Shown here: piece by piece, positions 29,953 to 44,030 of the stretch | Layout of the letters: each line of letters opens with the position of its first letter | How positions within the stretch are numbered: the stretch's first letter is position 1 | Virus record (IMG/VR): IMGVR_UViG_3300044701_000569 | Coordinates: 248,001-312,000 of that record | Reading direction: 5' to 3' (one strand) | DNA from: a virus | Length of the DNA stretch: 64,000 nucleotides | Notes under the pieces: model-generated | Told to the model about the DNA's origin: nothing | Seen by the model: only the letters and a program-made list of their open reading frames with translations | Databases searched by the model: none | Translations under genes and position numbers: made by a program

Positions 29953-30166
29953 TTGTTAACCCTAATGTTTGTGGACTATGATCTAATCTATTACCGCTAT
30001 CGTCGGAATAGAAGGTAGCATCTGGATCAGTTATAGTAACAGATAAATCGCTGTGCAACAGATCGTAATCTGTAAACTCAAAATTGTCTGTATACACACG
30101 GAATCGATAAACACCGTCTGCACACCAAATTAACTGTCCTTCTACTCCGTTAGCTGATATTTTCAT
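29942..30166 (-). CDS. Hypothetical small protein (74 aa)
   Basis: A 74-residue, beta-rich soluble protein (MKISANGVEGQLIWCADGVY, RFRVYTDNFEFTDYDLLHSD). It overlaps both neighbours (11 and 4 bases). Nothing catalytic is visible and the family is not recognised. Confidence 0.5.
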   Translation of the reverse strand: MKISANGVEGQLIWCADGVYRFRVYTDNFEFTDYDLLHSDLSVTITDPDATFYSDDSGNRLDHSPQTLGLTNER

Positions 30167-30594
30167 TTAAATTCTCGTTTCAAATAAAACTCTTTGATTG
30201 CTCTAGCATCATGTAGTGCATTATGCGGTACTTTAGATTCATAGTCAATCCCAAAATCTAGTTCAAACTTTAAATTGTGTAGCATGTTCAAACACATGCC
30301 AGGTCCTGTGATTAACGACTCACAGAAGTATCTAATGTCATCTGGCCAATCAGCAATAATAGTACAATCACCTACTTCCCACAAGTATTGTGCTAATGCC
30401 TGTTGATACTCGTGATACGAGCAAGGAGTCAGTACTAAGTGCGGTACTACATTTTCTTTCACCCACGGCTCTAACTGATCAAGCATTTGTATTTCTTTGT
30501 AGAATTCGCGGATGGAGTCATCCTCTGGCACCAAGGCCAGAGAGATGAGTTTTCCTCCAAATCCGTTAAACTCTGTATCTAAAAATAATCTCAT
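30163..30594 (-). CDS. DEDD-type 3'-5' exonuclease/exoribonuclease
   Basis: With the ATG at 30594 (overlapping the RNA ligase stop as ATGA) the product is 143 residues beginning MRLFLDTEFNG. Asp6/Glu8 of DTEF, the Asp in IIADWPDDIRYF and HNALHDARAIKEF give the DEDDh set. DTEF starts and the small size resemble Rv2179c-type exoribonucleases. It directly follows the RNA ligase, so a role in trimming RNA 3' ends before ligation, or RNA decay, is plausible. DNA could also be the substrate. Confidence 0.75.
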   Translation of the reverse strand: MRLFLDTEFNGFGGKLISLALVPEDDSIREFYKEIQMLDQLEPWVKENVVPHLVLTPCSYHEYQQALAQYLWEVGDCTIIADWPDDIRYFCESLITGPGMCLNMLHNLKFELDFGIDYESKVPHNALHDARAIKEFYLKREFK

Positions 30595-31490
30595 GCTAAT
30601 TGTTCCCGTACCCATGAAAGTCGAGCTTGCTCGTCCATGGCAGTATAAGCTACAATGTTAGCACGAATAGCATCCACAAGTGGATAGTATTCTTCATCCA
30701 GATTGTGTTTGATGTCCTTGTTCAAGTCCACTAACTTGTCTGTTCTAGGATTGCGAGCAACCCACTTTGAAGTCAAGTAGTAGGGTGATTTGATCTTGGC
30801 ACTTACACCATCTTGAGTATAGAATACAAATCCTTCGTGACGGCATTCTTTAGCCATAGCCTTTAGTTCGCCTAGGTTAACTCTGTAGACTTCTGGAACA
30901 TAGCACTTGAATGCTGAGGCCAGTAGTACGAGTGTTCCTGGGCCATGCATGATGCGGCTACGCCAAGAGTTTTCACGAATACCTAGTACATACATGCCTG
31001 GCTTTTCTGGAATGATGTGTGGATCGTTTGGATGCACACACTCAAACATCACAGTAACGCCCTGCATGTCGCTAGCATTAAATGCCAACTGCCAGTCAGT
31101 CCAGTCCATGTGTGTAAGCATCATTTCTTTTGCCATACGCACGTAGTCGCTGTCAGTACTACCAGTAGTGCTCACTAACACATCGTCCTTGTACCAAGTA
31201 CAGGCAACCATAAAGCCATTAACTTTACGATATGCTATAACTTCAGTGTCGTCTGCAAGCACAGGTGCTTGCTTTTCAATGCCGTAGTTATAGATCTTAG
31301 TAAAAGGGTATGCAACTAAGTTGAAGTTGGCATCTACGATACTCCCACGGCATTCTGCAATGTAGTCGTTCCACAGGTTATCGTAGAATACCTTCTTCTT
31401 GTACTTTAGAACAAAGATACCGTCGCCACAGTCTTTCATGTTCACTAAATCAGAAGTAGCAACATAGTCCTTTAATTCGTCTTTGAACAT
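30591..31490 (-). CDS. rnlA: RNA ligase, T4 Rnl1-like
   Basis: Starting at the ATG at 31490 (GGAG six bases upstream) the 299-residue protein has the nucleotidyltransferase motif Lys89-Val-Asn-Gly92 in AYRKVNGFMV. A motif III-like VTVMFECVHP follows, then the terminal motifs EGFVFYTQDGVSAKIKSPYY. T4 Rnl1 (374 residues) joins 3'-OH and 5'-phosphate RNA ends and reseals tRNA cut by host anticodon nucleases. The protein is shorter than Rnl1 at the C terminus, where Rnl1 has its tRNA-specific domain. It sits beside exonuclease, kinase and phosphatase genes and near the tRNA array. Confidence 0.85.
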   Translation of the reverse strand: MFKDELKDYVATSDLVNMKDCGDGIFVLKYKKKVFYDNLWNDYIAECRGSIVDANFNLVAYPFTKIYNYGIEKQAPVLADDTEVIAYRKVNGFMVACTWYKDDVLVSTTGSTDSDYVRMAKEMMLTHMDWTDWQLAFNASDMQGVTVMFECVHPNDPHIIPEKPGMYVLGIRENSWRSRIMHGPGTLVLLASAFKCYVPEVYRVNLGELKAMAKECRHEGFVFYTQDGVSAKIKSPYYLTSKWVARNPRTDKLVDLNKDIKHNLDEEYYPLVDAIRANIVAYTAMDEQARLSWVREQLA

Positions 31491-31491
31491 T

Positions 31492-31995
31492 TTAAACTCC
31501 AATATTCTTTCTAGCTTCTGCCATTAACGTAGCATCGCCTTTGGTCATAACAGCTAACAACAATCTCTTTTCCTCTAAGTAGGTCTTGGCAAACTTTTCG
31601 TCGTGTGCCACGATACTACGAGTGTTAGAGATTAAGTCAGCTAATTTAACAGTCTGTGCAGCCGCTGGTGCCATAGCAGAGTGAGCTCTGTCAATAGCCT
31701 TGCGAGTAGCTCTGTTACCCTGCTCAGGACGACTAACGTCAGTTAACCATCCAACTAACTCAGCAACTTCGTCACCAAACTCAGCACGGATTACTTCGTT
31801 CGTAACACCAGTGTCTTCAACAACGTCATGTAACCATGCCGCCGCCAACATCTCATCAGTGTGAGGAACAGCACTAACGATCCTCACAACCTCCGCAGGA
31901 TGGACGATGTAGGGCTCACCAGTGTACTTGCGTAATTGTGCTACAGCCGCATGAGCTGCGGTTGCAAACGTTCTAGCTCTTTCTACAATCGTCAT
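31492..31995 (-). CDS. HD-domain hydrolase of RelA/SpoT (small alarmone hydrolase) type
   Basis: The 167-residue protein keeps the SpoT-type HD residues: His32 in GEPYIVHPAEV, His56-Asp57 in AAWLHDVVEDTG, Glu60-Asp61, and Asp120/Asn124 in KLADLISNTRS. Only the hydrolase domain is present, as in MESH1-type small alarmone hydrolases that remove pyrophosphate from (p)ppGpp. Removing ppGpp would keep host transcription and translation active during infection. Another nucleotide substrate cannot be excluded. It is followed at once by the RNA ligase. Confidence 0.85.
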   Translation of the reverse strand: MTIVERARTFATAAHAAVAQLRKYTGEPYIVHPAEVVRIVSAVPHTDEMLAAAWLHDVVEDTGVTNEVIRAEFGDEVAELVGWLTDVSRPEQGNRATRKAIDRAHSAMAPAAAQTVKLADLISNTRSIVAHDEKFAKTYLEEKRLLLAVMTKGDATLMAEARKNIGV

Positions 31996-32005
31996 ATCCC
32001 TCTCC

Positions 32006-32563
32006 TTACATTACAGTGTCGTGATGACCTTTAACCTTACCACTCATTGCATCAGCAATCGCACGTTCCATAGTAACTGCAATCATCCCTGTTGCGTCCA
32101 TGCCCATGTCACGAGCTCGATATTCTTCCAATCCACTCTTACCACCGTGCAAGTGTCCATGTAAGTGAACAGCACCTCTGTGCATCTGATCCCATTCTGC
32201 AATTGGGTAGTGAAACATCACAACCCTAGTCTTTTCATAGGTAATGCACAGATAAGGATGCACTTCCAAAAAACAACTGCGAAACACAGGATCGTTCAAC
32301 AACTTCCTATCGTGGTTACCCTCAATTAAAATCTTTACGCCATTCAAACGACGAAGAATTTTTACAGCCTTGTCAGCTGGTAGAAATGCTACGTCGCCCA
32401 AGATGTAAACTTTATCTTCTGGAGCAATGGTTTGATTCCATTCTGAAATCATTTGCTCATTCATGTAAGTTACATCATTGTGAAATCTTGCTCGTGCCTG
32501 TGGACAGAAACGCATAATGTTTGTATGTCCGAAATGCAGGTCGCTTGTTACCCAAGTTGTCAT
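32006..32563 (-). CDS. Calcineurin-like metallophosphoesterase
   Basis: All metal motifs are visible in 185 residues: TSDLHFGHTNI (D-x-H), ILGDVAFLP (GD), IEGNHDRKL (GNHD), FHYPIAEW and HLHGHLHGG (GHxH). It resembles small phage and bacterial phosphoesterases related to YfcE. It is preceded by a promoter whose -35 overlaps the terminator of the kinase gene, so it opens a separate unit containing HD hydrolase, RNA ligase and exonuclease. A 2',3'-cyclic phosphate or nucleotide substrate would fit RNA repair, but this is an inference. Confidence 0.9.
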   Translation of the reverse strand: MTTWVTSDLHFGHTNIMRFCPQARARFHNDVTYMNEQMISEWNQTIAPEDKVYILGDVAFLPADKAVKILRRLNGVKILIEGNHDRKLLNDPVFRSCFLEVHPYLCITYEKTRVVMFHYPIAEWDQMHRGAVHLHGHLHGGKSGLEEYRARDMGMDATGMIAVTMERAIADAMSGKVKGHHDTVM

Positions 32564-32583
32564 ATTTCCCTCTTATTATTTGT

Positions 32584-32612
32584 ATTATATAGCCATAAAA
32601 AAGCCCTGTCAA
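32584..32612 (-). promoter_or_regulatory. Sigma-70-type early promoter overlapping a terminator
   Basis: TTGACA (32612-32607), 17-base spacer containing the terminator T-run, TATAAT (32589-32584). The -35 box is part of the 3' arm of the terminator hairpin at 32597-32632. Confidence 0.9.
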
Positions 32613-32632
32613 CCTAATAGATTAACAGGGCG
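32597..32632 (-). terminator. Rho-independent terminator after the kinase gene
   Basis: On the minus strand GCCCTGT pairs with ACAGGGC across a 15-base loop and is followed by TTTTTT. It lies 24 bases after the stop of the 32656 gene. Confidence 0.85.
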
Positions 32633-32655
32633 AAAGTGTGGCGTTTATGCAACAG

Positions 32656-33120
32656 TTATTCAGCGTTCCAAATTTCTTTGAAACCTTCAGTCTCTGTTGG
32701 CATTTGGAAGCTGGCAATCATGCTGGCAATAACATGCTCTGGAATGTTTTTGCCTGGACGACTCATTAATCGACGCATAAGTTCTTTGTGTTCTGGAGTC
32801 TTAAACACTACAGCAACGTGCTCGTAGTTTGGAAGCATATTAAACTTTCGTTTACGACTTTTTACATTAACTGAGGTTTGATCCCAGATGATATCCTTAC
32901 CCTGTTCGCGAGCTTCTATAACAGCCTGCGCCATTAGATCAACAGCAGTTGGCATATACTCTACAAAAACTTCTGAATAGGTTTTACCAACACTTCGTGC
33001 GTAATCTTCAACATGATTGTCTGTACTAACTACAGCACAGTCCTTAGCCCAATCTTGGTTAGAAATCCAAGTGCTCTTGCCGCTGCCTGGAACACCAATT
33101 AATTGATAGCACTTTGGCAT
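32656..33120 (-). CDS. P-loop polynucleotide kinase, T4 Pnk kinase domain only
   Basis: The 154-residue protein aligns with the N-terminal kinase half of T4 Pnk: Walker A GVPGSGKST (residues 9-17, Lys15), then IIWDQTSVNVKSRKRKF (T4 has ISDTNLNPERR) and VFKTPEHKELMRRLMSRPGK, the Arg-rich lid, then a MYKSM-like MIASF. The HAD-type 3'-phosphatase half of T4 Pnk is absent; the protein stops after the kinase. A separate phosphatase gene lies immediately upstream. It probably phosphorylates 5'-OH RNA or DNA ends. It is followed by a terminator. Confidence 0.8.
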   Translation of the reverse strand: MPKCYQLIGVPGSGKSTWISNQDWAKDCAVVSTDNHVEDYARSVGKTYSEVFVEYMPTAVDLMAQAVIEAREQGKDIIWDQTSVNVKSRKRKFNMLPNYEHVAVVFKTPEHKELMRRLMSRPGKNIPEHVIASMIASFQMPTETEGFKEIWNAE

Positions 33121-33659
33121 TAGATGTCTCCTTCTCTTTCTCTCCGCTCTCTACGAGCATGAGCCAAGGTAAAAACCTTTTCGTTATTATTAGTCCAATC
33201 TTCTGGAACCTCTACACCATTAATAGTGTGTGGCTCCTGTTCATCATAGGTCCAACCCAAAACTCGCATCATCTTGTGCTTGACTAATAAATTTGGACTG
33301 CGAAATGCTTCTGCATCATCAAAGCCCATCATAACACCAACTTCTGCAACTGCACCACTGCGACAAATGCCTGCATGACAGTGTACTACAACATCCATAC
33401 GGTTATCAAGAGCGTGTTGCAATAGGCGAACAAGTTGTTCTGCCTGAGAATCGCTGCATCTAAATGCTTCGTCAATGGTAAAGTCATTTGCTTCAATGTC
33501 AAGGAACTTGAATTGATGAGTTTCCTTAAATTGATGTTTGGGTGTTGGAAAGTTCATATCTGGATCAACAATTTGAATCAGCATTGAATTTTCGCCCACA
33601 CGGATATGATGTCCCTTAGGAATATCTACTAGTGCTACATTTTGAATCCACGGCATCAT
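33120..33659 (-). CDS. Dual-specificity/tyrosine-phosphatase-like protein (CX5R)
   Basis: The 179-residue protein holds the phosphatase loop VVHCHAGICRSG with nucleophile Cys94 and Arg100. An acidic loop upstream (DIEANDFTIDEAF) is followed by a helical segment, as in dual-specificity phosphatases. Its stop overlaps the start of the kinase gene by one base. CX5R enzymes can act on protein, lipid or RNA 5'-triphosphates. Beside a phosphatase-less Pnk domain, an RNA end-processing role is possible, though CX5R enzymes have not the chemistry of the T4 Pnk phosphatase. Confidence 0.8.
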   Translation of the reverse strand: MMPWIQNVALVDIPKGHHIRVGENSMLIQIVDPDMNFPTPKHQFKETHQFKFLDIEANDFTIDEAFRCSDSQAEQLVRLLQHALDNRMDVVVHCHAGICRSGAVAEVGVMMGFDDAEAFRSPNLLVKHKMMRVLGWTYDEQEPHTINGVEVPEDWTNNNEKVFTLAHARRERREREGDI

Positions 33660-34489: not shown

Positions 34490-34566
34490 TGGTGCTACCT
34501 CCTGGGATCGAACCAGGCACACCCAGATTTTCAGTCTGGTGCTCTACCAACTGAGCTAAGGTAGCA
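34490..34566 (-). tRNA. tRNA-Phe(GAA)
   Basis: Cloverleaf with acceptor TGCTACC/GGTAGCA, anticodon loop CTGAAAA, T-loop GGTTCGATCC and an encoded CCA end. Last tRNA of the array in transcription order. Confidence 0.95.
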
Positions 34567-34572
34567 AATTTT

Positions 34573-34649
34573 TGGGGTGAACGACGAGAGTTGAACTCGC
34601 TCTACCTGTTTCACAGACAAGTGTGCTAAACCGTTACACTACGAACACC
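34573..34649 (-). tRNA. tRNA-His(GTG)
   Basis: Anticodon loop CTGTGAA, extra 5' G (G-1), T-loop AGTTCAACT, encoded CCA. The acceptor stem (GTGTTCG/CGTTCAC) has two adjacent T-T mismatches, which is unusual. Confidence 0.9.
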
Positions 34650-34655
34650 ATTGTT

Positions 34656-34732
34656 TGGCCGGCTCTGAGGGACTCGAACCCCCAACCTCCAGTTTCGAAG
34701 ACTGGCACTCTAATCCATTGAGTTAAGAGCCG
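34656..34732 (-). tRNA. tRNA-Arg(TCG)
   Basis: Acceptor CGGCTCT/AGAGCCG, anticodon loop CTTCGAA, T-arm GGGGGTTCGAGTCCCTC, encoded CCA. Confidence 0.95.
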
Positions 34733-34736
34733 TTAT

Positions 34737-34812
34737 TGGTGGACCGGGAGGGGATCGAACCCACGACCGTCTGATTAAGAGTCAGCTACTCTACCTACTG
34801 AGTTACCAGTCC
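34737..34812 (-). tRNA. tRNA-Lys(CTT)
   Basis: Anticodon loop CTCTTAA, acceptor GGACTGG/CCGGTCC with one G-T pair, encoded ACCA. First of two lysine tRNAs. Confidence 0.93.
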
Positions 34813-34829
34813 ATTTAAACCTATTAGAA

Positions 34830-34886
34830 GAACACACTATATGCCTATTAACACGCATCTTAAGCGGGACTTACAATAGTGTGTTC
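34830..34886 (-). other. Long hairpin between tRNAs
   Basis: An 11-bp perfect stem (GAACACACTAT/ATAGTGTGTTC) encloses a 35-base loop between tRNA-Lys(CTT) and tRNA-Met. There is no T-run, so it is not a terminator; it may be a processing signal or a small RNA element. Confidence 0.5.
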
Positions 34887-34898
34887 ATTTAATAAGTT

Positions 34899-34973
34899 TG
34901 GTAGCAGCAATAGGAGTCGAACCTATACAACACGGCGTATGAGACCGTTGCACTACCATTATGCTATGCTGCT
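34899..34973 (-). tRNA. tRNA with CAT anticodon (elongator Met or Ile2)
   Basis: Acceptor AGCAGCA/TGCTGCT, anticodon loop CTCATAC, A73 and encoded CCA. It lacks initiator features. It could be elongator tRNA-Met or the tRNA-Ile whose C34 is changed to lysidine by TilS; this phage also encodes a TilS at 48.8 kb. Sequence alone does not decide. Confidence 0.9.
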
Positions 34974-34979
34974 AAAAAT

Positions 34980-35053
34980 TGGCTGGGCTGCATGGACTCG
35001 AACCACGATACCTGGAATCAAAATCCAGTGTCCTACCATTAGACGACAACCCA
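34980..35053 (-). tRNA. tRNA-Gln(TTG)
   Basis: Acceptor TGGGTTG/CAGCCCA, anticodon loop TTTTGAT, T-loop GGTTCGAGTCC, encoded CCA. Confidence 0.95.
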
Positions 35054-35060
35054 ATAAATT

Positions 35061-35152
35061 TGGCGACCCGTTAGCCCCACCGCTTTGGAGACGGTTCTGG
35101 ACCCCTGCATTCCACAGGACTTAGTGCTTCTAGATGTAGTCCGCCACGGGCC
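35061..35152 (-). tRNA. Atypical Trp(CCA)-like tRNA without a T arm
   Basis: Ends pair as a 7-bp acceptor (GGCCCGT/ACGGGTC) with an encoded GCCA, and ACCGT-CTCCAAA-GCGGT forms a good anticodon arm with CCA anticodon. But about 50 bases separate the 5' acceptor strand from that arm and only 7 bases follow it, so no T arm fits. A D-arm-like GGAC...GTCC is present. A normal tRNA-Trp lies at 35648-35722. This is either a noncanonical tRNA-like RNA or a rearranged relic. Confidence 0.45.
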
Positions 35153-35176
35153 AACGGCGGCCGTCTACATTAGTAT

Positions 35177-35410
35177 TCAATCCTTGAGTCCACCCCAGGA
35201 TGGAATCTTACCACTTGCTCTTTCCAAACTGTTGATAGTGTTAGGATCATCCATACAAATCCTATCAACGTATTGGTAGCGAGTTCTATCAACGTCATGC
35301 TTAAGACTTGCATAACATGCACCGTAATTCTTATATGCAACTACACCTGTAGATACAGTTCCATCGAAACTGATCAGTGTCATTACCATGATAACGCCAG
35401 ATAGCGTCAT
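35177..35410 (-). CDS. Small protein between tRNAs (77 aa)
   Basis: The ATG at 35410 has AAGGA nine bases upstream; a longer frame would start inside tRNA-Lys. The N terminus is hydrophobic (MTLSGVIMVMTLISFDGTVS), possibly a short membrane anchor or signal, then a charged body (ASLKHDVDRTRYQYVDRICM). It has two cysteines near residues 32 and 53. No family recognised. Confidence 0.6.
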   Translation of the reverse strand: MTLSGVIMVMTLISFDGTVSTGVVAYKNYGACYASLKHDVDRTRYQYVDRICMDDPNTINSLERASGKIPSWGGLKD

Positions 35411-35435
35411 TGCGTTGTTTCCTTCTTCAAAAAGT

Positions 35436-35511
35436 TGGTGGACGCTGTGGGGCTCGAACCCACGACTCACAGATTAAAAGTCTGTTACTCTACCAACTGA
35501 GTTAAGCGTCC
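35436..35511 (-). tRNA. tRNA-Lys(TTT)
   Basis: Acceptor GGACGCT/AGCGTCC, anticodon loop CTTTTAA, encoded ACCA. Second lysine tRNA. Confidence 0.95.
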
Positions 35512-35526
35512 TTAAATCTTATTCGT

Positions 35527-35555
35527 ACAATACAACGGTTCTAGCCCGTTGTCAA
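35527..35555 (-). promoter_or_regulatory. Sigma-70-type early promoter inside the tRNA array
   Basis: TTGACA (35555-35550), 17-base spacer, TATTGT (35532-35527), upstream of tRNA-Lys(TTT). Confidence 0.65.
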
Positions 35556-35564
35556 CAGTTATTT

Positions 35565-35641
35565 TGGAGTAGCGGATGGGACTCGAACCCACATAAAACA
35601 GTTTTGCAGACTGTAGCCTAACCATTCGGCGACACCGCTAC
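35565..35641 (-). tRNA. tRNA-Cys(GCA)
   Basis: Acceptor GTAGCGG/CCGCTAC, anticodon loop CTGCAAA, encoded TCCA. Confidence 0.95.
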
Positions 35642-35647
35642 ATAAAA

Positions 35648-35722
35648 TGGCATACCCTGAGAGATTTGAACTCCCACCAGCGGTTTTGGAGACCGTTATG
35701 CTGCCGTTAACACCAAGGGTAT
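35648..35722 (-). tRNA. tRNA-Trp(CCA)
   Basis: Acceptor ATACCCT/AGGGTAT, anticodon loop CTCCAAA, normal T arm, encoded GCCA. Confidence 0.93.
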
Positions 35723-35727
35723 ATGTT

Positions 35728-35802
35728 TGGTTGCCGCAGGTGGTTTCGAACCACCGACCCCAGCGTTATCAGCACTGTGCTCTACCCCTGAGCTATGCGG
35801 CA
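35728..35802 (-). tRNA. tRNA-Ile(GAT)
   Basis: Acceptor TGCCGCA/TGCGGCA, anticodon loop CTGATAA, T-arm GGTGGTTCGAAACCACC, encoded CCA. Confidence 0.95.
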
Positions 35803-35808
35803 ATATAT

Positions 35809-35897
35809 TGGTGGGTGTTGATGGTAACGCTCCACGTGGCAACTTCCCTCCGAAACAATGCCGACGGATTTACAGTCCGCTGGAGGGGGCAACACCC
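35809..35897 (-). tRNA. Atypical Tyr(GTA)-like tRNA without a normal D arm
   Basis: The ends pair as GGGTGTT/AACACCC with encoded ACCA, and GCGGA-CTGTAAA-TCCGT is a textbook Tyr anticodon arm. Only 10 bases lie between acceptor and anticodon arm, so no D arm fits. The 3' half is long, has CCCTCC/GGAGGG enclosing the anticodon arm, and the expected T-loop reads AGCGTTA instead of TTCRANY. It is the only tyrosine tRNA candidate in the window. Confidence 0.5.
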
Positions 35898-36125
35898 AAT
35901 AAATTGTAACACTCTCCGCTATGCTTTTTGACACCGTCATGGGGTGAAAGAAGAGTGTGTAGTAAAGCACTCTACATGGATGAACCCACTTGTCTCCTTA
36001 CGGATAGAGAATGCTTTACTACGCTAGGATTTTACTCTCTACGTTGTCGCCGTAGATTTGATCCCCTAGTCCGCCCGTTTATTTTTTAAAGTGCTGATAG
36101 GACCTCGTTTCCATTTGCACTGTAT
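35898..36125 (-). ncRNA. Structured noncoding RNA candidate A
   Basis: No reading frame covers this stretch between a terminator and the Tyr-like tRNA. Read on the minus strand it folds well: an 11-bp stem GTAGTAAAGCA/TGCTTTACTAC, inside it CTCTA/TAGAG and a TCC-GTAA-GGA GNRA hairpin, plus CTACG-GCGACAA-CGTAG and ACACTCT/AGAGTGT helices. The class is unknown; it does not show tmRNA or RNase P signatures that I can recognise. Confidence 0.5.
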
Positions 36126-36129
36126 AAAA

Positions 36130-36166
36130 GAAAACCCCCGGAGTATTTTACATTCCGGGGGTTTAT
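36130..36166 (-). terminator. Rho-independent terminator
   Basis: CCCCCGGAATG...CTCCGGGGG hairpin followed by TTTTCTTTT on the minus strand, closing the 22-codon ORF cassette. Confidence 0.85.
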
Positions 36167-36194
36167 GAAATTTCTTTGGTTCTAAAAATTTAGA

Positions 36195-36263
36195 TCAAGA
36201 AATACCCCCGCCCGGTTGATACCAGCGAATGCAAAACATGTGTTTAAAAATCTGTTTAGTCAT
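36195..36263 (-). CDS. Micro-ORF (22 aa) in its own transcription unit
   Basis: ATG at 36263 encodes MTKQIFKHMFCIRWYQPGGG then IS and a TGA stop. It lies between a strong promoter (36305-36333) and a strong terminator (36130-36166), so a transcript of about 165 bases is predicted. The ribosome site is weak (AAAGA). The transcript may be a small RNA with or without a translated peptide. The layout matches the unit at 44551-44737. Confidence 0.45.
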   Translation of the reverse strand: MTKQIFKHMFCIRWYQPGGGIS

Positions 36264-36304
36264 TTTAGGTCTTTCTTTGTCTGTTAGTTTGTTACTATAT
36301 ACAT

Positions 36305-36333
36305 AGTATAGTACAGTTATTTATCTCTGTCAA
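36305..36333 (-). promoter_or_regulatory. Sigma-70-type promoter with an embedded late box
   Basis: TTGACA (36333-36328), 17-base spacer, TATACT (36310-36305). The spacer contains the late-type GATAAATA (36325-36318). The same combination occurs at 44709-44737. Confidence 0.8.
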
Positions 36334-36381
36334 GTCTTTTCTTTTTAAAAGTGGCAAAAAAGTGTTGTATTTTTGCCACAC

Positions 36382-36801
36382 CTAGCGAGCTTGTTTCGCT
36401 AGTTCTTTATAACCACTCCAGCTAGGATGAACGCCATCCTTTTGTAGTGCTGGAATAGTTAATATAACATCACCGTATTTTTTTGCAACCTCTTTTATAA
36501 TCGTTTGAATCTCTTGAATACTTATGTTACTCTTTGGATGATTACCTGCGGGGAGGATCCAAAACACTCGTTTTCCTTGTACCTTCTCTCGCATCTTGAG
36601 CAGTTCTGCTCTAGTATTAACACCCTTGTGATCATTTGAACCTAGACTTATAATGACAACGCCTGCTGTCAAATCCTTGTTCAAATAGTCGCGATTCCAC
36701 TGCCAACTATTCCAGCCGCCTTTTGCATAGGCAACACATTCAGTACGGAAACTATGGGTTCCAACTGCAATACTGTCTCCTAAGATCAAACACTCTAACA
36801 T
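36382..36801 (-). CDS. SGNH/GDSL-type hydrolase
   Basis: The 139-residue protein has the family blocks: MLECLILGDSIAVGTHSF (block I, Ser in GDS), GVVIISLGSNDHKG (block III, Asn) and KDGVHPSWSGYKELA (block V, Asp and His). SGNH enzymes hydrolyse esters of lipids or surface sugars. At 139 residues it is compact and without signal peptide. It overlaps nothing and is preceded by a 31-residue membrane peptide gene. Possible roles include modification or deacetylation of host surface polymers. Confidence 0.85.
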   Translation of the reverse strand: MLECLILGDSIAVGTHSFRTECVAYAKGGWNSWQWNRDYLNKDLTAGVVIISLGSNDHKGVNTRAELLKMREKVQGKRVFWILPAGNHPKSNISIQEIQTIIKEVAKKYGDVILTIPALQKDGVHPSWSGYKELAKQAR

Positions 36802-36802
36802 A

Positions 36803-36898
36803 CTACTCTCCTAGTAAGAAAAGAAGAAGGAGTACACCCGTGAGCACAGGCATCCAGAATAAAAACAGTACAGATTTAACCCATTCTGAAAATGTCAT
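36803..36898 (-). CDS. Single-pass membrane micropeptide (31 aa)
   Basis: The ATG at 36898 follows AGGAGAG. The peptide MTFSEWVKSVLFLFWMPVLT then GVLLLLFLLGE is essentially one transmembrane helix. Its TAG is one base from the SGNH hydrolase ATG, with another AGGAG in between, so the two are co-translated. Confidence 0.65.
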   Translation of the reverse strand: MTFSEWVKSVLFLFWMPVLTGVLLLLFLLGE

Positions 36899-36916
36899 AC
36901 TCTCTCTCCTAAATTT

Positions 36917-36991
36917 TGGTGGGCGGTGAGAGTTTCGAACTCCCGACCCTCTCGGTGTAAACGAGACGCTCTACCACTGAGCTAACCGCCC
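36917..36991 (-). tRNA. tRNA-Val(TAC)
   Basis: Acceptor GGGCGGT/ACCGCCC, anticodon loop TTTACAC, T-arm GGGAGTTCGAAACTCTC, encoded CCA. It starts its own unit behind the promoter at 37010-37037. Confidence 0.95.
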
Positions 36992-37009
36992 ACTTAAACT
37001 AATACCTTT

Positions 37010-37037
37010 ATTATATAATAGAAATTAATAATGTCAA
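37010..37037 (-). promoter_or_regulatory. Sigma-70-type early promoter
   Basis: TTGACA (37037-37032), 16-base spacer, TATAAT (37015-37010). The TGA stop of the aminotransferase-like gene (37034-37036) is inside the -35 box. Confidence 0.9.
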
Positions 37038-37654
37038 GGCCTAATTATAATTTTTCTACAATCTGGATAATTGTAAAATTTTTTATCTTGTATTGTAAAA
37101 GTTTTAGTATTTAATTTATTAAGACCTTCTACAGCTTCTTCTGGTCTCATATAGTAGTGATATCCAACATTAAATTCTTTTTGATCAACCCATGGCGAAA
37201 ACGCAAAAACGTCTCTACCATCGTATCTCATTTTACTTGCTGCCTGTGCAAAATCTTTGTTATCAGTTAATATCATACCGCCTCGACCTATTTCAAGAGG
37301 TTTAGTTCTACCAAAACTTAAACACTGTATAGAGTCTGAACAATACATGTTTTCTTCTAAGCATCTAGCCATATCCCAGACATTAGTTCCTAAAATTTGA
37401 TAACCACCATTCCAGTCTATGTCATCTAATTCATATTCAATGTTTAACTTATGCAGTGTCATCAATACACTTAAATAGGTTCTACAAGGTATTTTTACAG
37501 TATTCTTTGGAATATTAAGCCTAAAAGATATTTCTAGAGCATGTGTACAGCAATCTGTTGCAATAGCATAGGGCGCACCAGTATATTTAGATATTTGATT
37601 TTCAAACTCTTTTATAGCCTCAAAAGGATTATCAAATTGATCTATTGTGTACAT
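37034..37654 (-). CDS. Short DegT/DnrJ-like PLP aminotransferase homologue
   Basis: The ATG at 37654 overlaps the previous stop (TGATG). The 206-residue protein shows the DegT fold pattern: FENQISKYTGAPYAIATDCC (substrate-side helix), ALEISFRL, IPCRTYLSVLMTL, then SFGRTKPLEIGRGGMILTD, which holds the likely PLP lysine (family: SFxxTKxLxxGEGG). DegT enzymes are 360-400 residues, so the C-terminal domain is missing. It might be a minimal sugar aminotransferase or a non-catalytic derivative. Confidence 0.7.
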   Translation of the reverse strand: MYTIDQFDNPFEAIKEFENQISKYTGAPYAIATDCCTHALEISFRLNIPKNTVKIPCRTYLSVLMTLHKLNIEYELDDIDWNGGYQILGTNVWDMARCLEENMYCSDSIQCLSFGRTKPLEIGRGGMILTDNKDFAQAASKMRYDGRDVFAFSPWVDQKEFNVGYHYYMRPEEAVEGLNKLNTKTFTIQDKKFYNYPDCRKIIIRP

Positions 37655-38145
37655 CACTGATGCCCAGTTATAATTAATACATGTCTATTTTCTGTGCTAA
37701 TATTAACTGCACTATGCTTTTCAGATCCCTTCCAACAAATATAAGAGCCTGCTGTCCAATTATTGTATACAATTGATCCAACTGTATTATATTGACCACT
37801 TTTTCCGTTTTCAAGAAAAAGAACAATTCTTTCTATGTTTTCTAGTTTTACAGAAAATTTAGATTTATAAAGAGTATATAAATCTAAATGTTCTGGAAGA
37901 TAGTGTCCAGGACGCAGTCTATGAAAACTTAAACCTATGTTATGTAAGTGTGAAAAATTCTTCAGAACATCATCAGTCCAGCTAGGCATTGGACTTGGAT
38001 AATCATATGTATCAATAGTTAGACTCTCCTTATCGTATCCTAAATCTAACCATTGATTTAATTGTGACAAATCTTTAAATTGTTCTTTTTTATAATTTAA
38101 AGATTTATAAGAGTTGTCCCAAATTACTGGAATATGTTTAAACAC
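37654..38145 (-). CDS. Cupin/2OG-oxygenase-like protein
   Basis: This frame starts at a GTG (38145) and gives 163 residues. LRPGHYLPEHLDLYTLYKSK provides an HxD-type metal motif, IERIVLFLENGKSG and AGSYICWKGSEKHSAVNIST the distal His, and ENRHVLIITG the basic residue, the layout of aspartyl/asparaginyl hydroxylase-like 2OG enzymes. It is coupled to the DegT-like gene by an overlapping stop/start. The substrate is unknown. Confidence 0.65.
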   Translation of the reverse strand: MFKHIPVIWDNSYKSLNYKKEQFKDLSQLNQWLDLGYDKESLTIDTYDYPSPMPSWTDDVLKNFSHLHNIGLSFHRLRPGHYLPEHLDLYTLYKSKFSVKLENIERIVLFLENGKSGQYNTVGSIVYNNWTAGSYICWKGSEKHSAVNISTENRHVLIITGHQ

Positions 38146-38146
38146 T

Positions 38147-38852
38147 TAATTTTTTCTACCACCAAATTACAGTGTTGGTGTGTATTCTCCTTAAGTGTAC
38201 TTATCAATATAAACAGAAGCGAAACTGCAAGTAATGAACTGGACAATGTGCAATCGGGGCTTCAGGTATCCACCCCACAAGCAATCTACAAATAACAATC
38301 TGCAGAAGACTTGCATATTTCCAGGTTCAAAGTGCAAATGTTCGTTTAGACTGGAGCATACAAGCACGGAGACATTTTCAAGTGTCTTGAGCGTTAGTTG
38401 TTGTTTAAACCTCGGAAGACCGAAGTCATCCGTAACAACACGGTTGTCCATCCTAATCTCAGCTTCACTTCCGGGTAGTTTACGCTATTAACGCATAACT
38501 ACCAAAACTCACTTTAAGAAATAGCACAGTTTACTATTCTTCACTGCCTGTTGTAGACAACCTATGGTTGTCGTTTCCTAGGATCACAGGGCTCCGATCC
38601 AAACAAGGTTCTCCGTGTACATTGGAGCACGAGCTGTGCTATTACTTAAAGTGTCCAGCTACTAGTCCCCACTAGCCCTGAACTGAGTTGTTACCCTGTC
38701 CGCTCCATTTCCATTTAGACGGTGGAAGTCCGCCTTTGTGATTTCTCAAGTCGCTTCTGAAATGAAGCCTTGCGGTTGATCCAATGCACCGTAGCGTTTA
38801 TGGTTTGCTAATTACCCACTTTAGATAACGTCAAAGTGTAAACCGGGGTTTC
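38147..38852 (-). ncRNA. Large structured noncoding RNA candidate B (~700 nt)
   Basis: No convincing gene covers 706 bases. Read on the minus strand it is full of helices: a near-perfect 20-bp stem (CACTTTAAG.AATAGCACAG with CTGTGCTATT.CTTAAAGTG, arms about 38504-38523 and 38631-38650), GGTAGTT/AACTACC, a GAC-TTCG-GTC tetraloop and GCTTC/GAAGC. Size, phage context and closeness to tRNAs recall the ROOL and GOLLD classes, but I cannot verify a family match. It lies downstream of the 188-residue gene and may share its transcript. Confidence 0.55.
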
Positions 38853-39419
38853 TTAGAGAATGTCTGCTCTTACAAGTAAGTTAGCAGTTTCATCGTCCAG
38901 TGTCAACTCTGTTTGAACATTAAGCTCAAGCAGTGTATCCTGTAGCTTCTGCTTACGACGTTTGAGATCGGCAACAGTTCGTTTGAATTCTTCAACTTCA
39001 GCATCAGTGAAGATGCCTGTGTCAATTGTATCGTAACGACCGTACAAGCGGCTTTCTTCCTTAGAATTGCGCACCTTCTCTAACTTGCCTTCAATAACCT
39101 TGTCACTGAGGCGAGCAGTCTTAGTAGACAATCCGTTATAATGCTGAATCTGCTTCTCTAGCATCGCTACGTCTGCCAACATGTCGTTAATGCCCTGCTC
39201 TGCATTAGCACGAGCCACACTACGACGAATTTCAAACAACGCACCAATTAACTTTTCGCGAGTTGAATTATGAGCCGTGAAGCGGCCACGCACAGATTCA
39301 ATCTGTGCCTTGTAGTCTTCATACTCGTTCAACTGCACTGATGTTGGGAAATCAAGACCCTTGATCATTTCGTTGATTGCTAATTGTACAGCGTTTGCCT
39401 TGCGTAGTGTGATTTGCAT
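38853..39419 (-). CDS. Coiled-coil protein of unknown function (188 aa)
   Basis: The product is almost entirely helical with long heptad stretches (ANAEQGINDMLADVAMLEKQ, EVEEFKRTVADLKRRKQKLQ) and no hydrophobic membrane segment. Early promoter and purine-rich AAGG leader precede it. Its stop is followed immediately by structured RNA candidate B. An RNA- or DNA-associated scaffolding role could be imagined, but there is no recognised family. Confidence 0.6.
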   Translation of the reverse strand: MQITLRKANAVQLAINEMIKGLDFPTSVQLNEYEDYKAQIESVRGRFTAHNSTREKLIGALFEIRRSVARANAEQGINDMLADVAMLEKQIQHYNGLSTKTARLSDKVIEGKLEKVRNSKEESRLYGRYDTIDTGIFTDAEVEEFKRTVADLKRRKQKLQDTLLELNVQTELTLDDETANLLVRADIL

Positions 39420-39445
39420 TTTGTTTTTTCCTTGTTTATGTGTTT

Positions 39446-39473
39446 ATTATACAGCGATTAGTTGTTTTGTCAA
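39446..39473 (-). promoter_or_regulatory. Sigma-70-type early promoter
   Basis: TTGACA (39473-39468), 16-base spacer, TATAAT (39451-39446), upstream of the coiled-coil gene and RNA candidate B. Confidence 0.9.
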
Positions 39474-39481
39474 CTACTTTG

Positions 39482-40210
39482 TTATTTCTCTACGAATGCT
39501 CGTTCAAGTACATAGTCTCCCGGTTCACGTAATGAACCTTCTAACATGTTCTTGCTTTTGCACCACTTAGCAACTTGTTGATTAAACTCTAAATTACCAC
39601 ACAACATAATTTTATCAGTATTGGAGTTAATTGTTAAGGTGTTATCTAGTTGATCTGTGATTCTTTTACCACCTTCGCCGGTCACGATAGGTATGTAATT
39701 AAGAATTGGCTTAACCAGTTCTTCTAAATCAGTGCCTTCAAAACTATTTGACAACTCATTGTAGTATGCTAAATCATTACGATTTCTTACACTATGTACA
39801 ATGTTAATCTTTGTCCATGTTTCAAGTGTTTCAACGTCACGTATCAAACTCATAAAGGGTGCAAGACCTGTACCTGTTGCTAGCAACCATAGATCGCCAC
39901 CCTTCTTCAATGCATCGTTACGCAACGTGCCTGTGGGCTTTTCCGTCAAAATGATTTCATCGCCAATTTTAATGTTTTGTAGTTTGCTAGTCAACTCACC
40001 TTCTGTTAGCTTGATGCTTAGAAATTCTAATTCATCTGCCCAAGGAGGACTGACTACGCTGTATGCTCTCAATACGTTCTTACCATCAATGTTAAGACCA
40101 CACATAGCAAACTCACCTGCGTTAAACTTGAAAGTTTGGCTGCGTGTAGTCTTAAAACTGAATGTCCTGTTGCTCCAGTGATGGACCCATGTAACTGTTT
40201 CTGTAATCAT
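39482..40210 (-). CDS. fpr: Ferredoxin-NADP+ reductase (bacterial Fpr type)
   Basis: The 242-residue flavoprotein has the FAD-binding RAYS motif (48-51, RAYSVVSPPWADELEFLSIK), the NADP-binding ATGTGLAPFMSLIRD (111-125) and the typical C terminus YVLERAFVEK of proteobacterial reductases. It moves electrons between NADPH and ferredoxin or flavodoxin. Length is that of a complete enzyme. This is an auxiliary metabolic gene, lying directly after tRNA-Ser. It could feed reducing power to the oxygenases or Fe-S proteins that this phage encodes, which is an inference. Confidence 0.93.
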   Translation of the reverse strand: MITETVTWVHHWSNRTFSFKTTRSQTFKFNAGEFAMCGLNIDGKNVLRAYSVVSPPWADELEFLSIKLTEGELTSKLQNIKIGDEIILTEKPTGTLRNDALKKGGDLWLLATGTGLAPFMSLIRDVETLETWTKINIVHSVRNRNDLAYYNELSNSFEGTDLEELVKPILNYIPIVTGEGGKRITDQLDNTLTINSNTDKIMLCGNLEFNQQVAKWCKSKNMLEGSLREPGDYVLERAFVEK

Positions 40211-40226
40211 TGTCCCTGCTTATTAT

Positions 40227-40318
40227 TGGCGGAAGCGGTGAGATTCGAACTCACGGTAGGGTCACCCCTACGTCTGATTTCAAGTCAGGTGCATTAAACC
40301 GGGCTCTGCCACACTTCC
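40227..40318 (-). tRNA. tRNA-Ser(TGA)
   Basis: Class II tRNA with long variable arm (GTAGGGGTGACCCTAC), anticodon loop CTTGAAA, acceptor GGAAGTG/CGCTTCC, encoded GCCA. Confidence 0.95.
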
Positions 40319-40323
40319 TTTTG

Positions 40324-40494
40324 TTACTTAAAGTCTTCAGGGAGATTTTCCCTAAAAGACAAATCAATTGAATTAAGGTTCTTTAGTGCTCTATATGCAT
40401 ACATGGCTGCTAGGCCTGTAACTCCAACAACAGCAAAAAGGGCTACCTTAGGAGCCCATTGCTTTGTCTTTGATAGAATCTTTTCTCTATTCAC
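40324..40494 (-). CDS. Small single-pass membrane protein (56 aa, GTG start)
   Basis: A 56-codon frame fills the gap between tRNA-fMet and tRNA-Ser: VNREKILSKTKQWAPKVALF then AVVGVTGLAAMYAYRALKN, one transmembrane helix at about 17-36 with a positive N-terminal side, then an acidic tail LPEDFK. AGAAGAG lies upstream of the GTG. In-frame codons continue upstream but only to the end of the tRNA. No family recognised. Confidence 0.6.
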   Translation of the reverse strand: MNREKILSKTKQWAPKVALFAVVGVTGLAAMYAYRALKNLNSIDLSFRENLPEDFK

Positions 40495-40518
40495 TAATTT
40501 TGCTTTCTCTTCTAAAAT

Positions 40519-40593
40519 TGGTTGCGGAGGACGGAATCGAACCGCCGATCTTTAGGTTATGAGCCTAATGAGTTACCTCTTCTCTACCCCGCG
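40519..40593 (-). tRNA. Initiator tRNA-fMet(CAT)
   Basis: Acceptor CGCGGGG against CTCCGCA gives the initiator hallmark C1-A72 mismatch. Anticodon arm TTAGG-CTCATAA-CCTAA has two G-C pairs next to the loop (E. coli has three). T-arm GGCGGTTCGATTCCGTC and encoded ACCA. It is a phage-borne initiator tRNA. Confidence 0.93.
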
Positions 40594-40599
40594 TCAAAA

Positions 40600-41733
40600 T
40601 GTTATACAGCTGACAACCTATTTGTGCCACCACATTATTGGCACCATTCACCCTTTTCCGGATTAGCATGCGGGATTCGGTACGTTATTACAGTTACTTG
40701 CCCAACGCTTCTATGTTTGTGCTAGGGTATTGCGCCCCTCGTTGTTTACATTTGCTTTGGCTGGCCAGCTACTTGCAAACGTGACTTTCACTTACTAACA
40801 ATTGATTGTCATGTGTATAACATCTTACGTTTTTACTAAGCCTGAGATTACAGCATAGTGAGGAAGTCTTTGGTCATTACCGCAAGCCTTGCGAGCCGCG
40901 TTCTACCTTTATCCACCGGCGTCCTTACGGATCATCCAGTAACTTCCAGTGCTGCCTTTTTTAGAGTGTGGCGTTTCACTCGTCGTATGTTGCTATTCGT
41001 CCATCTATCCTACGCCAGCCTTGCGAGCTGTTCAACGGCGCTAACCGCTTACGTTCTCTATCCGAACAATCACTTCTGCCTTGCGAGCTTCTGTGAACCT
41101 AATTCACTTACGTGTCAGGTATTAAGCACCTTTCACAACATACCGGGACAGTCTTTCGCTTTTTGTAATATCAAAGAAGGATTTGAACCTTCGCCGATTC
41201 CTTATCAATGGAATTGCTCTACCACTGAGCTATTTGCGAACCTACTTTGATGTGCTGTCCCAGTTGCTCCATATCTTGTTAGATACAGAATACAACACAC
41301 CAACTGTCTTTTGTCTTGCGGACTACTCAACGGTCTTTCAAGTTTCCGGTTACCCTTCAACTCTCAGACTAGTGACTTGCCTTTCCCTGCTAGGTTAGAC
41401 TAGTCACTTACCTATTAGCCGTTTGCAATCGTTAGTTTGGCTGCAAGTTGCGTGAGCGCCAACCCACTTACACCTCACCGAATGGCTCTGGTGCTATGCT
41501 TTCGCACAACCTGCCTAACTTACTGCATACCGCCTTTCTACGGACGGGGAGCGGTTCGACATTGCTGCCACCTGCCTCCTAGCTTAGGCTTGCATGAATG
41601 AACTGTATTGCTACAGCGCAGGTATGTAGGAATTCCTGCTTTGGGTGAGTTGCCTCACTTATTCTAAGGACGTCATGCCGCCCAATTAACTATTTTAAAG
41701 AACGTTTGTAACAACACTTGTTTGCTACATCAT
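40600..41733 (-). ncRNA. GOLLD-like giant structured RNA with internal tRNA
   Basis: A perfect promoter (41740-41767) fires into about 1.13 kb without genes, ending at tRNA-fMet. The RNA carries three copies of a GCTCGCAAGGC hairpin (GNRA loop GCAA with a bulged T), further GNRA loops (TCC-GTAA-GGA), AGTGACT/AGTCACT, and a CTGGGACAG/CTGTCCCGG stem that encloses a tRNA-Ile-like sequence. GOLLD RNAs (about 800-1000 nt) occur in phages beside tRNAs and can contain a tRNA, so this is the best class guess; I could not run a covariance search. Confidence 0.65.
41166..41251 (-). tRNA. tRNA-Ile(GAT)-like domain inside the giant RNA
   Basis: TAGCTCAGTGGTAGAGC D arm, anticodon region with GAT, and GAAGGTTCAAATCCTTC T arm are canonical. 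The anticodon loop has an extra base, the acceptor is imperfect next to TAGCTC but pairs as ATCAAAG/CTTTGAT if a 12-base insert is looped out, and there is no CCA. A normal tRNA-Ile(GAT) exists at 35728. It looks like a tRNA co-opted as a structural domain. Confidence 0.6.
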
Positions 41734-41739
41734 ATCCTT

Positions 41740-41767
41740 ATTATATACGCTTTTACTTCTTTGTCAA
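41740..41767 (-). promoter_or_regulatory. Sigma-70-type early promoter for the giant RNA
   Basis: TTGACA (41767-41762), 16-base spacer, TATAAT (41745-41740). Transcription would start near 41733. Confidence 0.9.
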
Positions 41768-41797
41768 CATCTTTTTTAGATATTTTAGAAATTTTTT

Positions 41798-42151
41798 TCA
41801 GCGTCTATGTAACCGCTCAACTTGGACGGTGCAAACACCGCCGCACCCAAGTTTCCTTGCCACACCTTCTGAGAGATCAATATCGCGACCATTAATAAAT
41901 GGTCCTCTATCGTTCACTCTTACCTCAACACTCTTACCTTTATGAGAAACTCTCAAAATAGTATTAAAAGGCAGTGTCCTGTGAGCAACCGTCATACCTT
42001 GCGGATCAAACGATTCTCCGTTTGCAGTTCTACTTCCATGTTTATACCAACTGGCTACCATTGTGGTATTGTTAGGTGGCGGATTCGCATATCCAATTGT
42101 CGTACATCCGCTTAACAGAACTCCAAACATTAGTAGAAATGGTTTAGCCAT
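41798..42151 (-). CDS. rlpA: RlpA-like double-psi beta-barrel lipoprotein
   Basis: The ATG at 42151 gives 117 residues: MAKPFLLMFGVLLSGCTTIG is a lipoprotein signal with lipobox LLSGC. VASWYKHGSRTANGESFDPQ, then MTVAHRTLPFNTILRVSH and VRVNDRGPFINGRDIDLS, is the RlpA double-psi barrel. RlpA proteins are outer-membrane lytic transglycosylases acting on peptidoglycan without stem peptides. The C-terminal SPOR domain of host RlpA is absent. A role in lysis or envelope remodelling is likely. A longer frame would start inside tRNA-Gly. Confidence 0.92.
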   Translation of the reverse strand: MAKPFLLMFGVLLSGCTTIGYANPPPNNTTMVASWYKHGSRTANGESFDPQGMTVAHRTLPFNTILRVSHKGKSVEVRVNDRGPFINGRDIDLSEGVARKLGCGGVCTVQVERLHRR

Positions 42152-42165
42152 TTTTTTCCTCCGTT

Positions 42166-42241
42166 TGGAGCGGGCGAAGAGGTTCGAACTCTTGACATTT
42201 ACCTTGGCAAGGTAATGCTCTACCAACTGAGCTACGCCCGC
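42166..42241 (-). tRNA. tRNA-Gly(GCC)
   Basis: Acceptor GCGGGCG/CGCCCGC, anticodon loop TTGCCAA, encoded TCCA. A strong hairpin (CTGCTGC/GCAGCAG) lies just upstream at 42244-42265. Confidence 0.95.
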
Positions 42242-42295
42242 ATTCTGCTGCTTTTTAAGGCAGCAGTTTTTATTTAGTCCAAAAAATAGACTAAA

Positions 42296-42448
42296 TTAGC
42301 TTGGAACTATCTTTGGAATATACGGAACTGCTCTAGGACCACCGTACAGTTGCTCAAAAAGTTTCTTAGCCTCTTGCGGAGTATCCGCATAGATTCTTTT
42401 CTTTTCTTCGCCCTGTGGCGTTCTAACAGTAGTTTCGTACATTGGCAT
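42296..42448 (-). CDS. Small protein (50 aa)
   Basis: The ATG at 42448 has AAGGAG upstream; the longer frame would begin inside tRNA-Pro. MPMYETTVRTPQGEEKKRIY then ADTPQEAKKLFEQLYG suggests a beta strand pair and a helix, like small phage proteins that act on r-proteins or DNA. No family recognised. Confidence 0.6.
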   Translation of the reverse strand: MPMYETTVRTPQGEEKKRIYADTPQEAKKLFEQLYGGPRAVPYIPKIVPS

Positions 42449-42464
42449 GATATGCTCCTTGTAA

Positions 42465-42542
<78 letters not shown>

Positions 42543-42550
42543 AATTCTTA

Positions 42551-42913: not shown

Positions 42914-42940
42914 GTTTTCCTCCGTTGGGTTAGGGTACTA

Positions 42941-43315: not shown

Positions 43316-43346
43316 TATATCTCATGCCTCTCCTAGTCTAAAGCTA

Positions 43347-43430
43347 TGGTGCCCCAGGGGAGACTCGAACTCCCACGCCTTGCGACATTGGCTTCTAAGA
43401 CCAACGTGTCTACCATTCCACCACCAGGGC
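43347..43430 (-). tRNA. tRNA-Leu(TAG)
   Basis: Class II tRNA with long variable arm, anticodon loop CTTAGAA, acceptor GCCCTGG/CTGGGGC with wobble, encoded ACCA. Confidence 0.93.
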
Positions 43431-43438
43431 AAATATTG

Positions 43439-43513: not shown

Positions 43514-43557
43514 ATTACTTTTTAATTATCACGCAACACTAAACTAAACTATAAAAC

Positions 43558-43631: not shown

Positions 43632-43640
43632 ATAAAAACT

Positions 43641-44019: not shown

Positions 44020-44030
44020 ATAAATCTAAC

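What the first reader, a model, noticed from the sequence alone, without database searches (positions are those of the whole stretch)
30163..33659. RNA-repair cluster with a split Pnk
RNA ligase, DEDD exonuclease, phosphoesterase, SpoT-type HD protein, a T4 Pnk-type kinase lacking its phosphatase half, and an adjacent CX5R phosphatase form one region ahead of the tRNA array in the map. In T4, Pnk and Rnl1 repair tRNA cut by anticodon nucleases. Here the two Pnk functions may be carried by separate genes.
Basis: partly seen in the sequence, partly recalled or inferred. Interest (0 to 1): 0.75.

Follow-up and report, generated by a model that had tools for sequence, protein, structure and literature searches.

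The report
Phage tRNA-repair cassette with unfused kinase
Next to its block of 24 predicted tRNA genes, this giant bacterial virus carries a set of enzymes that look able to mend tRNAs damaged by the host's antiviral defences; the two halves of the classic T4 end-healing enzyme are not fused here, and the same set recurs in many related viruses.

Summary
The genes are real and at the stated coordinates: a CX5R phosphatase (PTP), a 154-aa T4-Pnk-type kinase without a phosphatase half, a calcineurin-like phosphoesterase (MPE), a SpoT/MESH1-type hydrolase (SAH), an Rnl1-type RNA ligase (RNL) and a DEDD exonuclease, beside a tRNA array in a 357,559-bp phage record. The clustering is not chance: PTP and MPE lie within 3.5 kb of the kinase in 31/31 related loci, in several gene orders, while other neighbours are not kept. 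The exonuclease is not part of the conserved set (0/26). Independent cultured phages place this kinase family beside Rnl1-type ligase, or beside Hen1 and a PNKP ligase, and some carry a separate HAD_PNKP phosphatase. So an unfused Pnk is real. The claim that the CX5R protein supplies the missing half is weaker: PTP also occurs without the kinase, and in cultured phages MPE is the commoner companion. The SAH is 49% identical to PaSpo of phage SSU5, which strips the pyrophosphate that toxSAS toxins put on tRNA. Best reading: a tRNA-repair cassette (kinase for 5' ends, MPE for 3' ends, ligase, SAH), with PTP a conserved partner of unknown substrate. New variant of a known kind; no activity was tested.

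The parts
33120..33659 (-). PTP: CX5R (HCHAGICRS) dual-specificity-type phosphatase, 179 aa
   Evidence: Tc-R-P 1.9e-07, DSPc 5.9e-06; C94 and R100 invariant in 28 homologues; model pLDDT 83.9, DSP fold Z 10.4
32656..33120 (-). PNK: T4-Pnk-type P-loop kinase, 154 aa, no phosphatase domain
   Evidence: conserved K15, T17, D34, D80, R117, R121 in 66 homologues; T4 R38 position is V37
32006..32563 (-). MPE: calcineurin-like metallophosphoesterase, 185 aa
   Evidence: D8, H10, D57, N83, H84, H118, H137, H139 invariant; fold nearest aq_1665 1xm7, Z 17.2
31492..31995 (-). SAH: SpoT/MESH1-type small alarmone hydrolase, 167 aa
   Evidence: 49% identical to PaSpo of phage SSU5 over 154 columns, HD motifs shared
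30591..31502 (-). RNL: short Rnl1-type ATP-dependent RNA ligase, 303 aa, lacking the T4 Rnl1 C-terminal domain
   Evidence: motif I K93-V-N-G, E223-G, K236-x-K
30163..30615 (-). DEDD-type exonuclease (phrog_2259); in the same gene run but not a conserved member
   Evidence: 2.3e-32; absent from 26/26 RNL loci and 29/29 SAH loci
34490..44363 (-). array of 24 predicted tRNA genes
   Evidence: arrays beside the same genes in L104, L122, L272, L072
34461..34488 (-). perfect sigma70-type promoter match just after tRNA-Phe, reading into the PTP-PNK unit
   Evidence: consensus match only
32603..32631 (-). intrinsic-terminator-like hairpin (13 pairs) after PNK
   Evidence: consensus match only
32584..32612 (-). 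perfect sigma70-type promoter match in front of MPE-SAH-RNL
   Evidence: 34 such matches genome-wide, mostly in two arms

Best explanation
A phage tRNA-repair cassette. Inferred working: host anticodon nucleases leave 2',3'-cyclic phosphate (or 3'-phosphate) and 5'-OH ends; the stand-alone kinase phosphorylates the 5'-OH; the metallophosphoesterase MPE most likely opens and removes the 3' phosphate; the Rnl1-type ligase seals the break; the SAH removes pyrophosphate that toxSAS-type toxins put on tRNA 3'-CCA ends. PTP is a conserved partner whose substrate is not known. Shown here: the genes, the conserved residues, the conserved clustering, the tRNA array. Inferred: every enzymatic step. The kinase step is the best supported (about 0.75), MPE as the 3' healer less (about 0.5), SAH acting on tRNA about 0.45.
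For: Kinase, PTP and MPE stay together through changes of gene order (31/31 kinase loci); RNL-anchored loci have MPE 26/26, kinase 22/26, SAH 15/26; SAH-anchored loci have MPE 29/29, kinase 28/29; tRNA arrays adjoin in several. The kinase family directly adjoins or overlaps an Rnl1-type ligase in phages Cr30, RpAliso, RcXuper, MD18 and RHph_I1_18, the last also with CCA-transferase, Thg1 and tRNAs; it lies next to Hen1 and a PNKP_ligase protein in XacN1, and is fused to an HD domain about 1.7 kb from an Rnl1-like ligase in Campylobacter phage F341. Unfused Pnk has a precedent: separate HAD_PNKP-type phosphatase genes in RpAliso, RcXuper and MD18. MPE adjoins RNL in phages outra and ESCO13 and lies close to the kinase in phiN3 and BUCT-ZZ01. 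The SAH is 49% identical to PaSpo of phage SSU5, which removes the tRNA modification made by toxSAS FaRel2 (PMC11559606). No RtcB or Rnl2 match in the genome.
Against: No activity was tested. Only 5 of 37 related records have a detectable Rnl1-type ligase and 2 an Rnl2; most are fragments, but the trio persists where no ligase is seen. The Arg at T4 R38 is Val here. The MPE fold is nearest to a protein of unknown function and to LpxH. A SAH could act on free alarmones instead of tRNA. A terminator-like hairpin and a promoter match lie between PNK and MPE, so they may be separate transcripts.
Confidence: 0.6

Rival explanations
1. One reading: the CX5R phosphatase PTP is the missing phosphatase half of Pnk and heals 3' ends; MPE does something else.
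For: PTP lies within 3.5 kb of the kinase in 31/31 kinase loci and its gene directly abuts the kinase here, with a promoter match upstream and a terminator-like hairpin after PNK. Weak PTP-SAK match, below the Pfam cut-off.
Against: PTP occurs without the kinase nearby in many loci (kinase in 19/37); MPE is equally constant and pairs with ligase or kinase in unrelated phages; among annotated phages PTP matched only BUCT-ZZ01. The Asp aligned with the DUSP16 general-acid region (D59) is not conserved. CX5R enzymes are not known to me to open 2',3'-cyclic phosphates.
Confidence: 0.17
2. SAH, MPE and PTP destroy host signalling nucleotides (alarmones, cyclic nucleotides) or protein phosphorylation; their place beside kinase and ligase is a general counter-defence island, not one RNA pathway.
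For: Iyer et al. 2021 class phage HD-alarmone enzymes and T5 A1-type calcineurin-like enzymes as counter-signal enzymes (PMC7824862); the PTP fold is generic DSP.
Against: Repeated tight pairing of MPE with RNA ligase and of the kinase with ligase, Hen1 or CCA-transferase; PaSpo evidence for action on tRNA.
Confidence: 0.15
3. The genes are merely early accessory genes that collect beside the tRNA array, without a joint function.
For: 34 perfect promoter matches mark early-type regions, this one included; some neighbours (2OG enzyme, DUF3307) are plainly variable.
Against: Selective retention: PTP and MPE 31/31, against DUF3307 1/31 and 2OG 1/31.
Confidence: 0.08

Closest known systems
T4 Pnk (PseT) plus Rnl1 tRNA repair
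   Same: 5'-OH kinase of the same P-loop class and an Rnl1-type ligase in one region
   Different: Kinase is unfused and no HAD phosphatase was found; ligase lacks the Rnl1 C-terminal domain; MPE, PTP and SAH are added
Roseophage set (RpAliso, RcXuper, MD18)
   Same: Stand-alone kinase of the same family beside an Rnl1-type ligase; Pnk functions on separate genes
   Different: Their phosphatase is a stand-alone HAD_PNKP protein, not an MPE or PTP; no SAH detected in the stretches read
Bacterial Pnkp-Hen1 and Pnkp1-Rnl-Hen1
   Same: Kinase, phosphatase and ligase cooperate in RNA repair (PMC4411300); a calcineurin-like phosphatase in Clostridium Pnkp, from my own knowledge
   Different: Separate genes here; no Hen1 in the cluster; ligase of Rnl1 type
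HD-Pnk (Runella, from my own knowledge; Campylobacter phage form)
   Same: Related kinase domain
   Different: The HD here is SpoT/MESH1-type (HD_4), on its own gene, not fused
PaSpo of phage SSU5 (SAH)
   Same: 49% identity and shared HD motifs; PaSpo removes the toxSAS mark from tRNA
   Different: PaSpo was not seen beside RNA-repair genes in the 6.4 kb read

Membership tests
T4-type polynucleotide kinase (kinase domain) | P-loop GxxGxGKS/T, catalytic Asp, lid Arg residues | tested here: met
   K15, T17, D34, R117, R121 conserved in 66 homologues; alignment with T4 Pnk
T4-type polynucleotide kinase (kinase domain) | Arg at T4 position 38 | tested here: not met
   Val37 in the window; Val or Ile in nearly all relatives aligned
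T4 Pnk (bifunctional enzyme) | C-terminal HAD 3'-phosphatase domain on the same protein | tested here: not met
   154-aa protein; phrog_505 matched over 1-145 of 295 only
T4 Pnk (bifunctional enzyme) | HAD_PNKP phosphatase on a separate gene of the genome | tested here: inconclusive
   No match in the 357,559-bp record; the family search tool can miss true members (it missed RNL with PF09511)
Rnl1 RNA ligase | Nucleotidyltransferase motifs (motif I Lys, IV, V) | tested here: met
   K93, E223-G224, K236 and K238 invariant with T4 Rnl1
Rnl1 RNA ligase | T4_Rnl1_C C-terminal domain | tested here: not met
   No PF20819 match; protein ends at 303 aa; Cr30 ligase has it
Small alarmone hydrolase (MESH1/SpoT HD) | RKYTGEPYxxHP, HDVVEDT and KLADLxxNT motifs | tested here: met
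Small alarmone hydrolase acting on tRNA (PaSpo-like) | Removes pyrophosphate from tRNA CCA ends | not testable with these tools
   Only homology: 49% identity to PaSpo; activity of PaSpo from PMC11559606
Calcineurin-like metallophosphoesterase | Di-metal ligands DxH, GD, GNH, H, GHxH | tested here: met
   invariant in 13 sequences
Dual-specificity phosphatase | CX5R loop and DSP fold | tested here: met
Dual-specificity phosphatase | Conserved general-acid Asp | tested here: inconclusive
   D59 variable, D54 and E56 invariant
Bacterial Pnkp-Hen1 system | Kinase, phosphatase and ligase on one polypeptide with Hen1 | tested here: not met
   separate genes; no Hen1 among the named proteins of the cluster

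The most novel reading that the evidence does not exclude
PTP, kinase and MPE form one unfused end-healing complex in which a CX5R phosphatase acts on RNA ends, a role I know for no such enzyme in tRNA break repair, and which works together with a SAH so that one cassette reverses both tRNA cleavage and CCA-end pyrophosphorylation.
Probability: 0.15. Interest if true: 0.8.

Novelty: new variant of a known kind. Interest (0 to 1): 0.5.

Why it matters
Host defences that cut or block tRNAs are common, and phages are known to answer with tRNAs, Pnk and RNA ligase. Here the healing functions are unfused and travel with a hydrolase whose relative reverses toxSAS damage, so one early phage cassette may undo two different kinds of tRNA damage. 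It makes a testable case for which phosphatase replaces the Pnk phosphatase half, and gives a conserved but unexplained CX5R phosphatase family a functional context.

Tried and rejected
A HAD phosphatase hidden elsewhere in the genome: not found. RtcB or Rnl2 as an alternative sealing enzyme in this genome: not found. The PF09511 family search missed the window's own ligase, so negative results of that tool are weak. The exonuclease as a cassette member: rejected, 0/26 and 0/29. Fold search to name PTP's substrate: only generic DSP matches, with the baculovirus RNA 5'-phosphatase at rank 44 in Foldseek. Fold search for MPE: aq_1665 (unknown function), then LpxH. XacN1 'metallophosphoesterase' as an MPE: rejected, it is a PNKP ligase-domain protein. 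Bacterial relatives of PTP: only five MAG contigs, not examined further. Near DNA match to known phages: none. The paper by Burroughs and Aravind on RNA-repair systems is not in the library, so I could not check whether a DSP phosphatase was proposed there. A match of the DUF2828 protein to a solved Ro/TROVE structure: none by sequence.
Full report
The window is bases 248001-312000 of a 357,559-bp IMG/VR virus record with no near DNA match among 50,697 phage records. All six genes named in the finding exist at the stated place, on the minus strand, in a tight run, and ARAGORN predicts 24 tRNA genes upstream of them on the same strand.

Kinase. The 154-aa protein matches phrog_505 (full-length T4-type Pnk) over positions 1-145 of 295 only. 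The P-loop lysine, the catalytic aspartate, the W-D-Q-T motif and the two lid arginines are at least 98% conserved in 66 homologues. The residue at T4 R38 is Val. No HAD_PNKP phosphatase was found in the record, with the caveat that the genome search can miss true members.

Kinase context outside this clade. In Caulobacter phage Cr30, Ruegeria phage RpAliso, Rhodobacter phage RcXuper, Phaeobacter phage MD18 and Rhizobium phage RHph_I1_18 the related kinase gene follows an Rnl1-type ligase gene with an overlap, and in RHph_I1_18 also stands with CCA-transferase, Thg1 and tRNAs. RpAliso, RcXuper and MD18 have a separate HAD_PNKP-type phosphatase gene. In Xanthomonas phage XacN1 the kinase is next to Hen1 (PF22032, 5.1e-59) and a PNKP_ligase protein; the XacN1 authors noted the last two as tRNA repair genes (PMC5852040). 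In Campylobacter phage F341 the kinase is fused to an HD domain, with an Rnl1-like ligase about 1.7 kb away. This is the strongest support for a polynucleotide kinase in RNA repair, and shows that unfused Pnk is not unique to this phage.

Clustering within the clade. With kinase-anchored loci that have at least 3.5 kb on each side, PTP and MPE are both within 3.5 kb on the same strand in 31/31, while DUF3307 and the 2OG enzyme are in 1/31. Gene order varies widely. RNL-anchored loci (4.5 kb): MPE 26/26, PTP 22/26, kinase 22/26, SAH 15/26, exonuclease 0/26. SAH-anchored loci: MPE 29/29, kinase 28/29, PTP 26/29. These loci are related to one another, so the counts are not independent; the changes of order and the loss of other neighbours are what argue for selection. 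Several such loci also adjoin tRNA arrays.

Which phosphatase. PTP is kept with the kinase but is also present without it: kinase within 3.5 kb in 19/37 PTP loci, MPE in 30/37. Among annotated phages PTP matched only BUCT-ZZ01, where ligase, kinase, MPE and PTP all lie within about 9 kb. MPE adjoins the same short ligase in phage outra and lies within 0.2 kb of it in ESCO13, and lies near the kinase in phiN3. I therefore favour MPE as the 3'-end healer. Neither model search names a substrate: PTP is a generic DSP fold (best Z 10.4) and MPE is nearest to aq_1665 of unknown function (Z 17.2) and then LpxH.

SAH. The HD protein carries the SpoT/MESH1 motifs and is 49% identical to PaSpo of Salmonella phage SSU5. 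PaSpo removes the tRNA modification made by the toxSAS FaRel2 (PMC11559606), and the toxSAS CapRel is a phage-activated defence (PMC9712102). A SAH beside end-healing and sealing enzymes and tRNA genes thus fits one theme, repair of tRNA, although Iyer et al. place phage alarmone hydrolases among counter-signal enzymes (PMC7824862).

Ligase. RNL is a short Rnl1-type enzyme with the nucleotidyltransferase motifs but without the T4 Rnl1 C-terminal domain. Only 5 of 37 related records have a match to it; most records are fragments.

Expression. A perfect sigma70-type promoter match follows tRNA-Phe (34488-34461) and another precedes MPE (32612-32584), with a terminator-like hairpin after the kinase gene. 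Thirty-four such promoter matches occur in the record, mostly in two arms. From this I infer early expression and two transcription units, PTP-PNK and MPE-SAH-RNL.

Known and new. Iyer et al. already proposed that calcineurin-like or HD-like domains supply the phosphatase activity in a few jumbo phages. What I did not find in the papers read is the conserved set kinase-PTP-MPE with SAH and short Rnl1, nor a CX5R enzyme in this setting; the most relevant earlier survey could not be read. I rate it a new variant of a known kind.

Noticed in passing
L080:4009-5421 and L072, L067, L095, L131: A 463-490-aa DUF2828/DUF7788 protein (phrog_850, 'RNA-binding protein') lies beside PTP, PNK and MPE in many loci (44 of 156 searched); it may be a Ro/TROVE-like RNA-binding protein, but no solved relative was matched.
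   Followed up: partly
L051:2924-3346: A 140-aa GGQ-type RF-1-domain release factor occurs in 13 loci of the set, perhaps for ribosome rescue.
   Followed up: no
window 29758-29952: A 64-aa protein of unknown function lies within 4.5 kb of RNL in 26/26 loci.
   Followed up: no
AP018399.1 103018-104232 (L182:6852-8066): The XacN1 gene annotated 'metallophosphoesterase' matches the PNKP ligase domain (PF16542, 1.2e-30).
   Followed up: yes
window 41168-41239: A predicted tRNA with an odd four-base anticodon call (tgat).
   Followed up: no
own record 11663-23296 (+) and 268447-332491 (-): Perfect TTGACA-N16-18-TATAAT promoter matches cluster in two arms of the 357,559-bp record.
   Followed up: partly
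L036:3459-3689: A 76-aa RNA polymerase omega/Rpb6-like protein (PF01192, 7e-14) occurs in 45 loci of the set.
   Followed up: no
L338, L339: PTP relatives in bacterial MAG contigs (76% and 56% identity), possibly phage contigs binned with bacteria.
   Followed up: no
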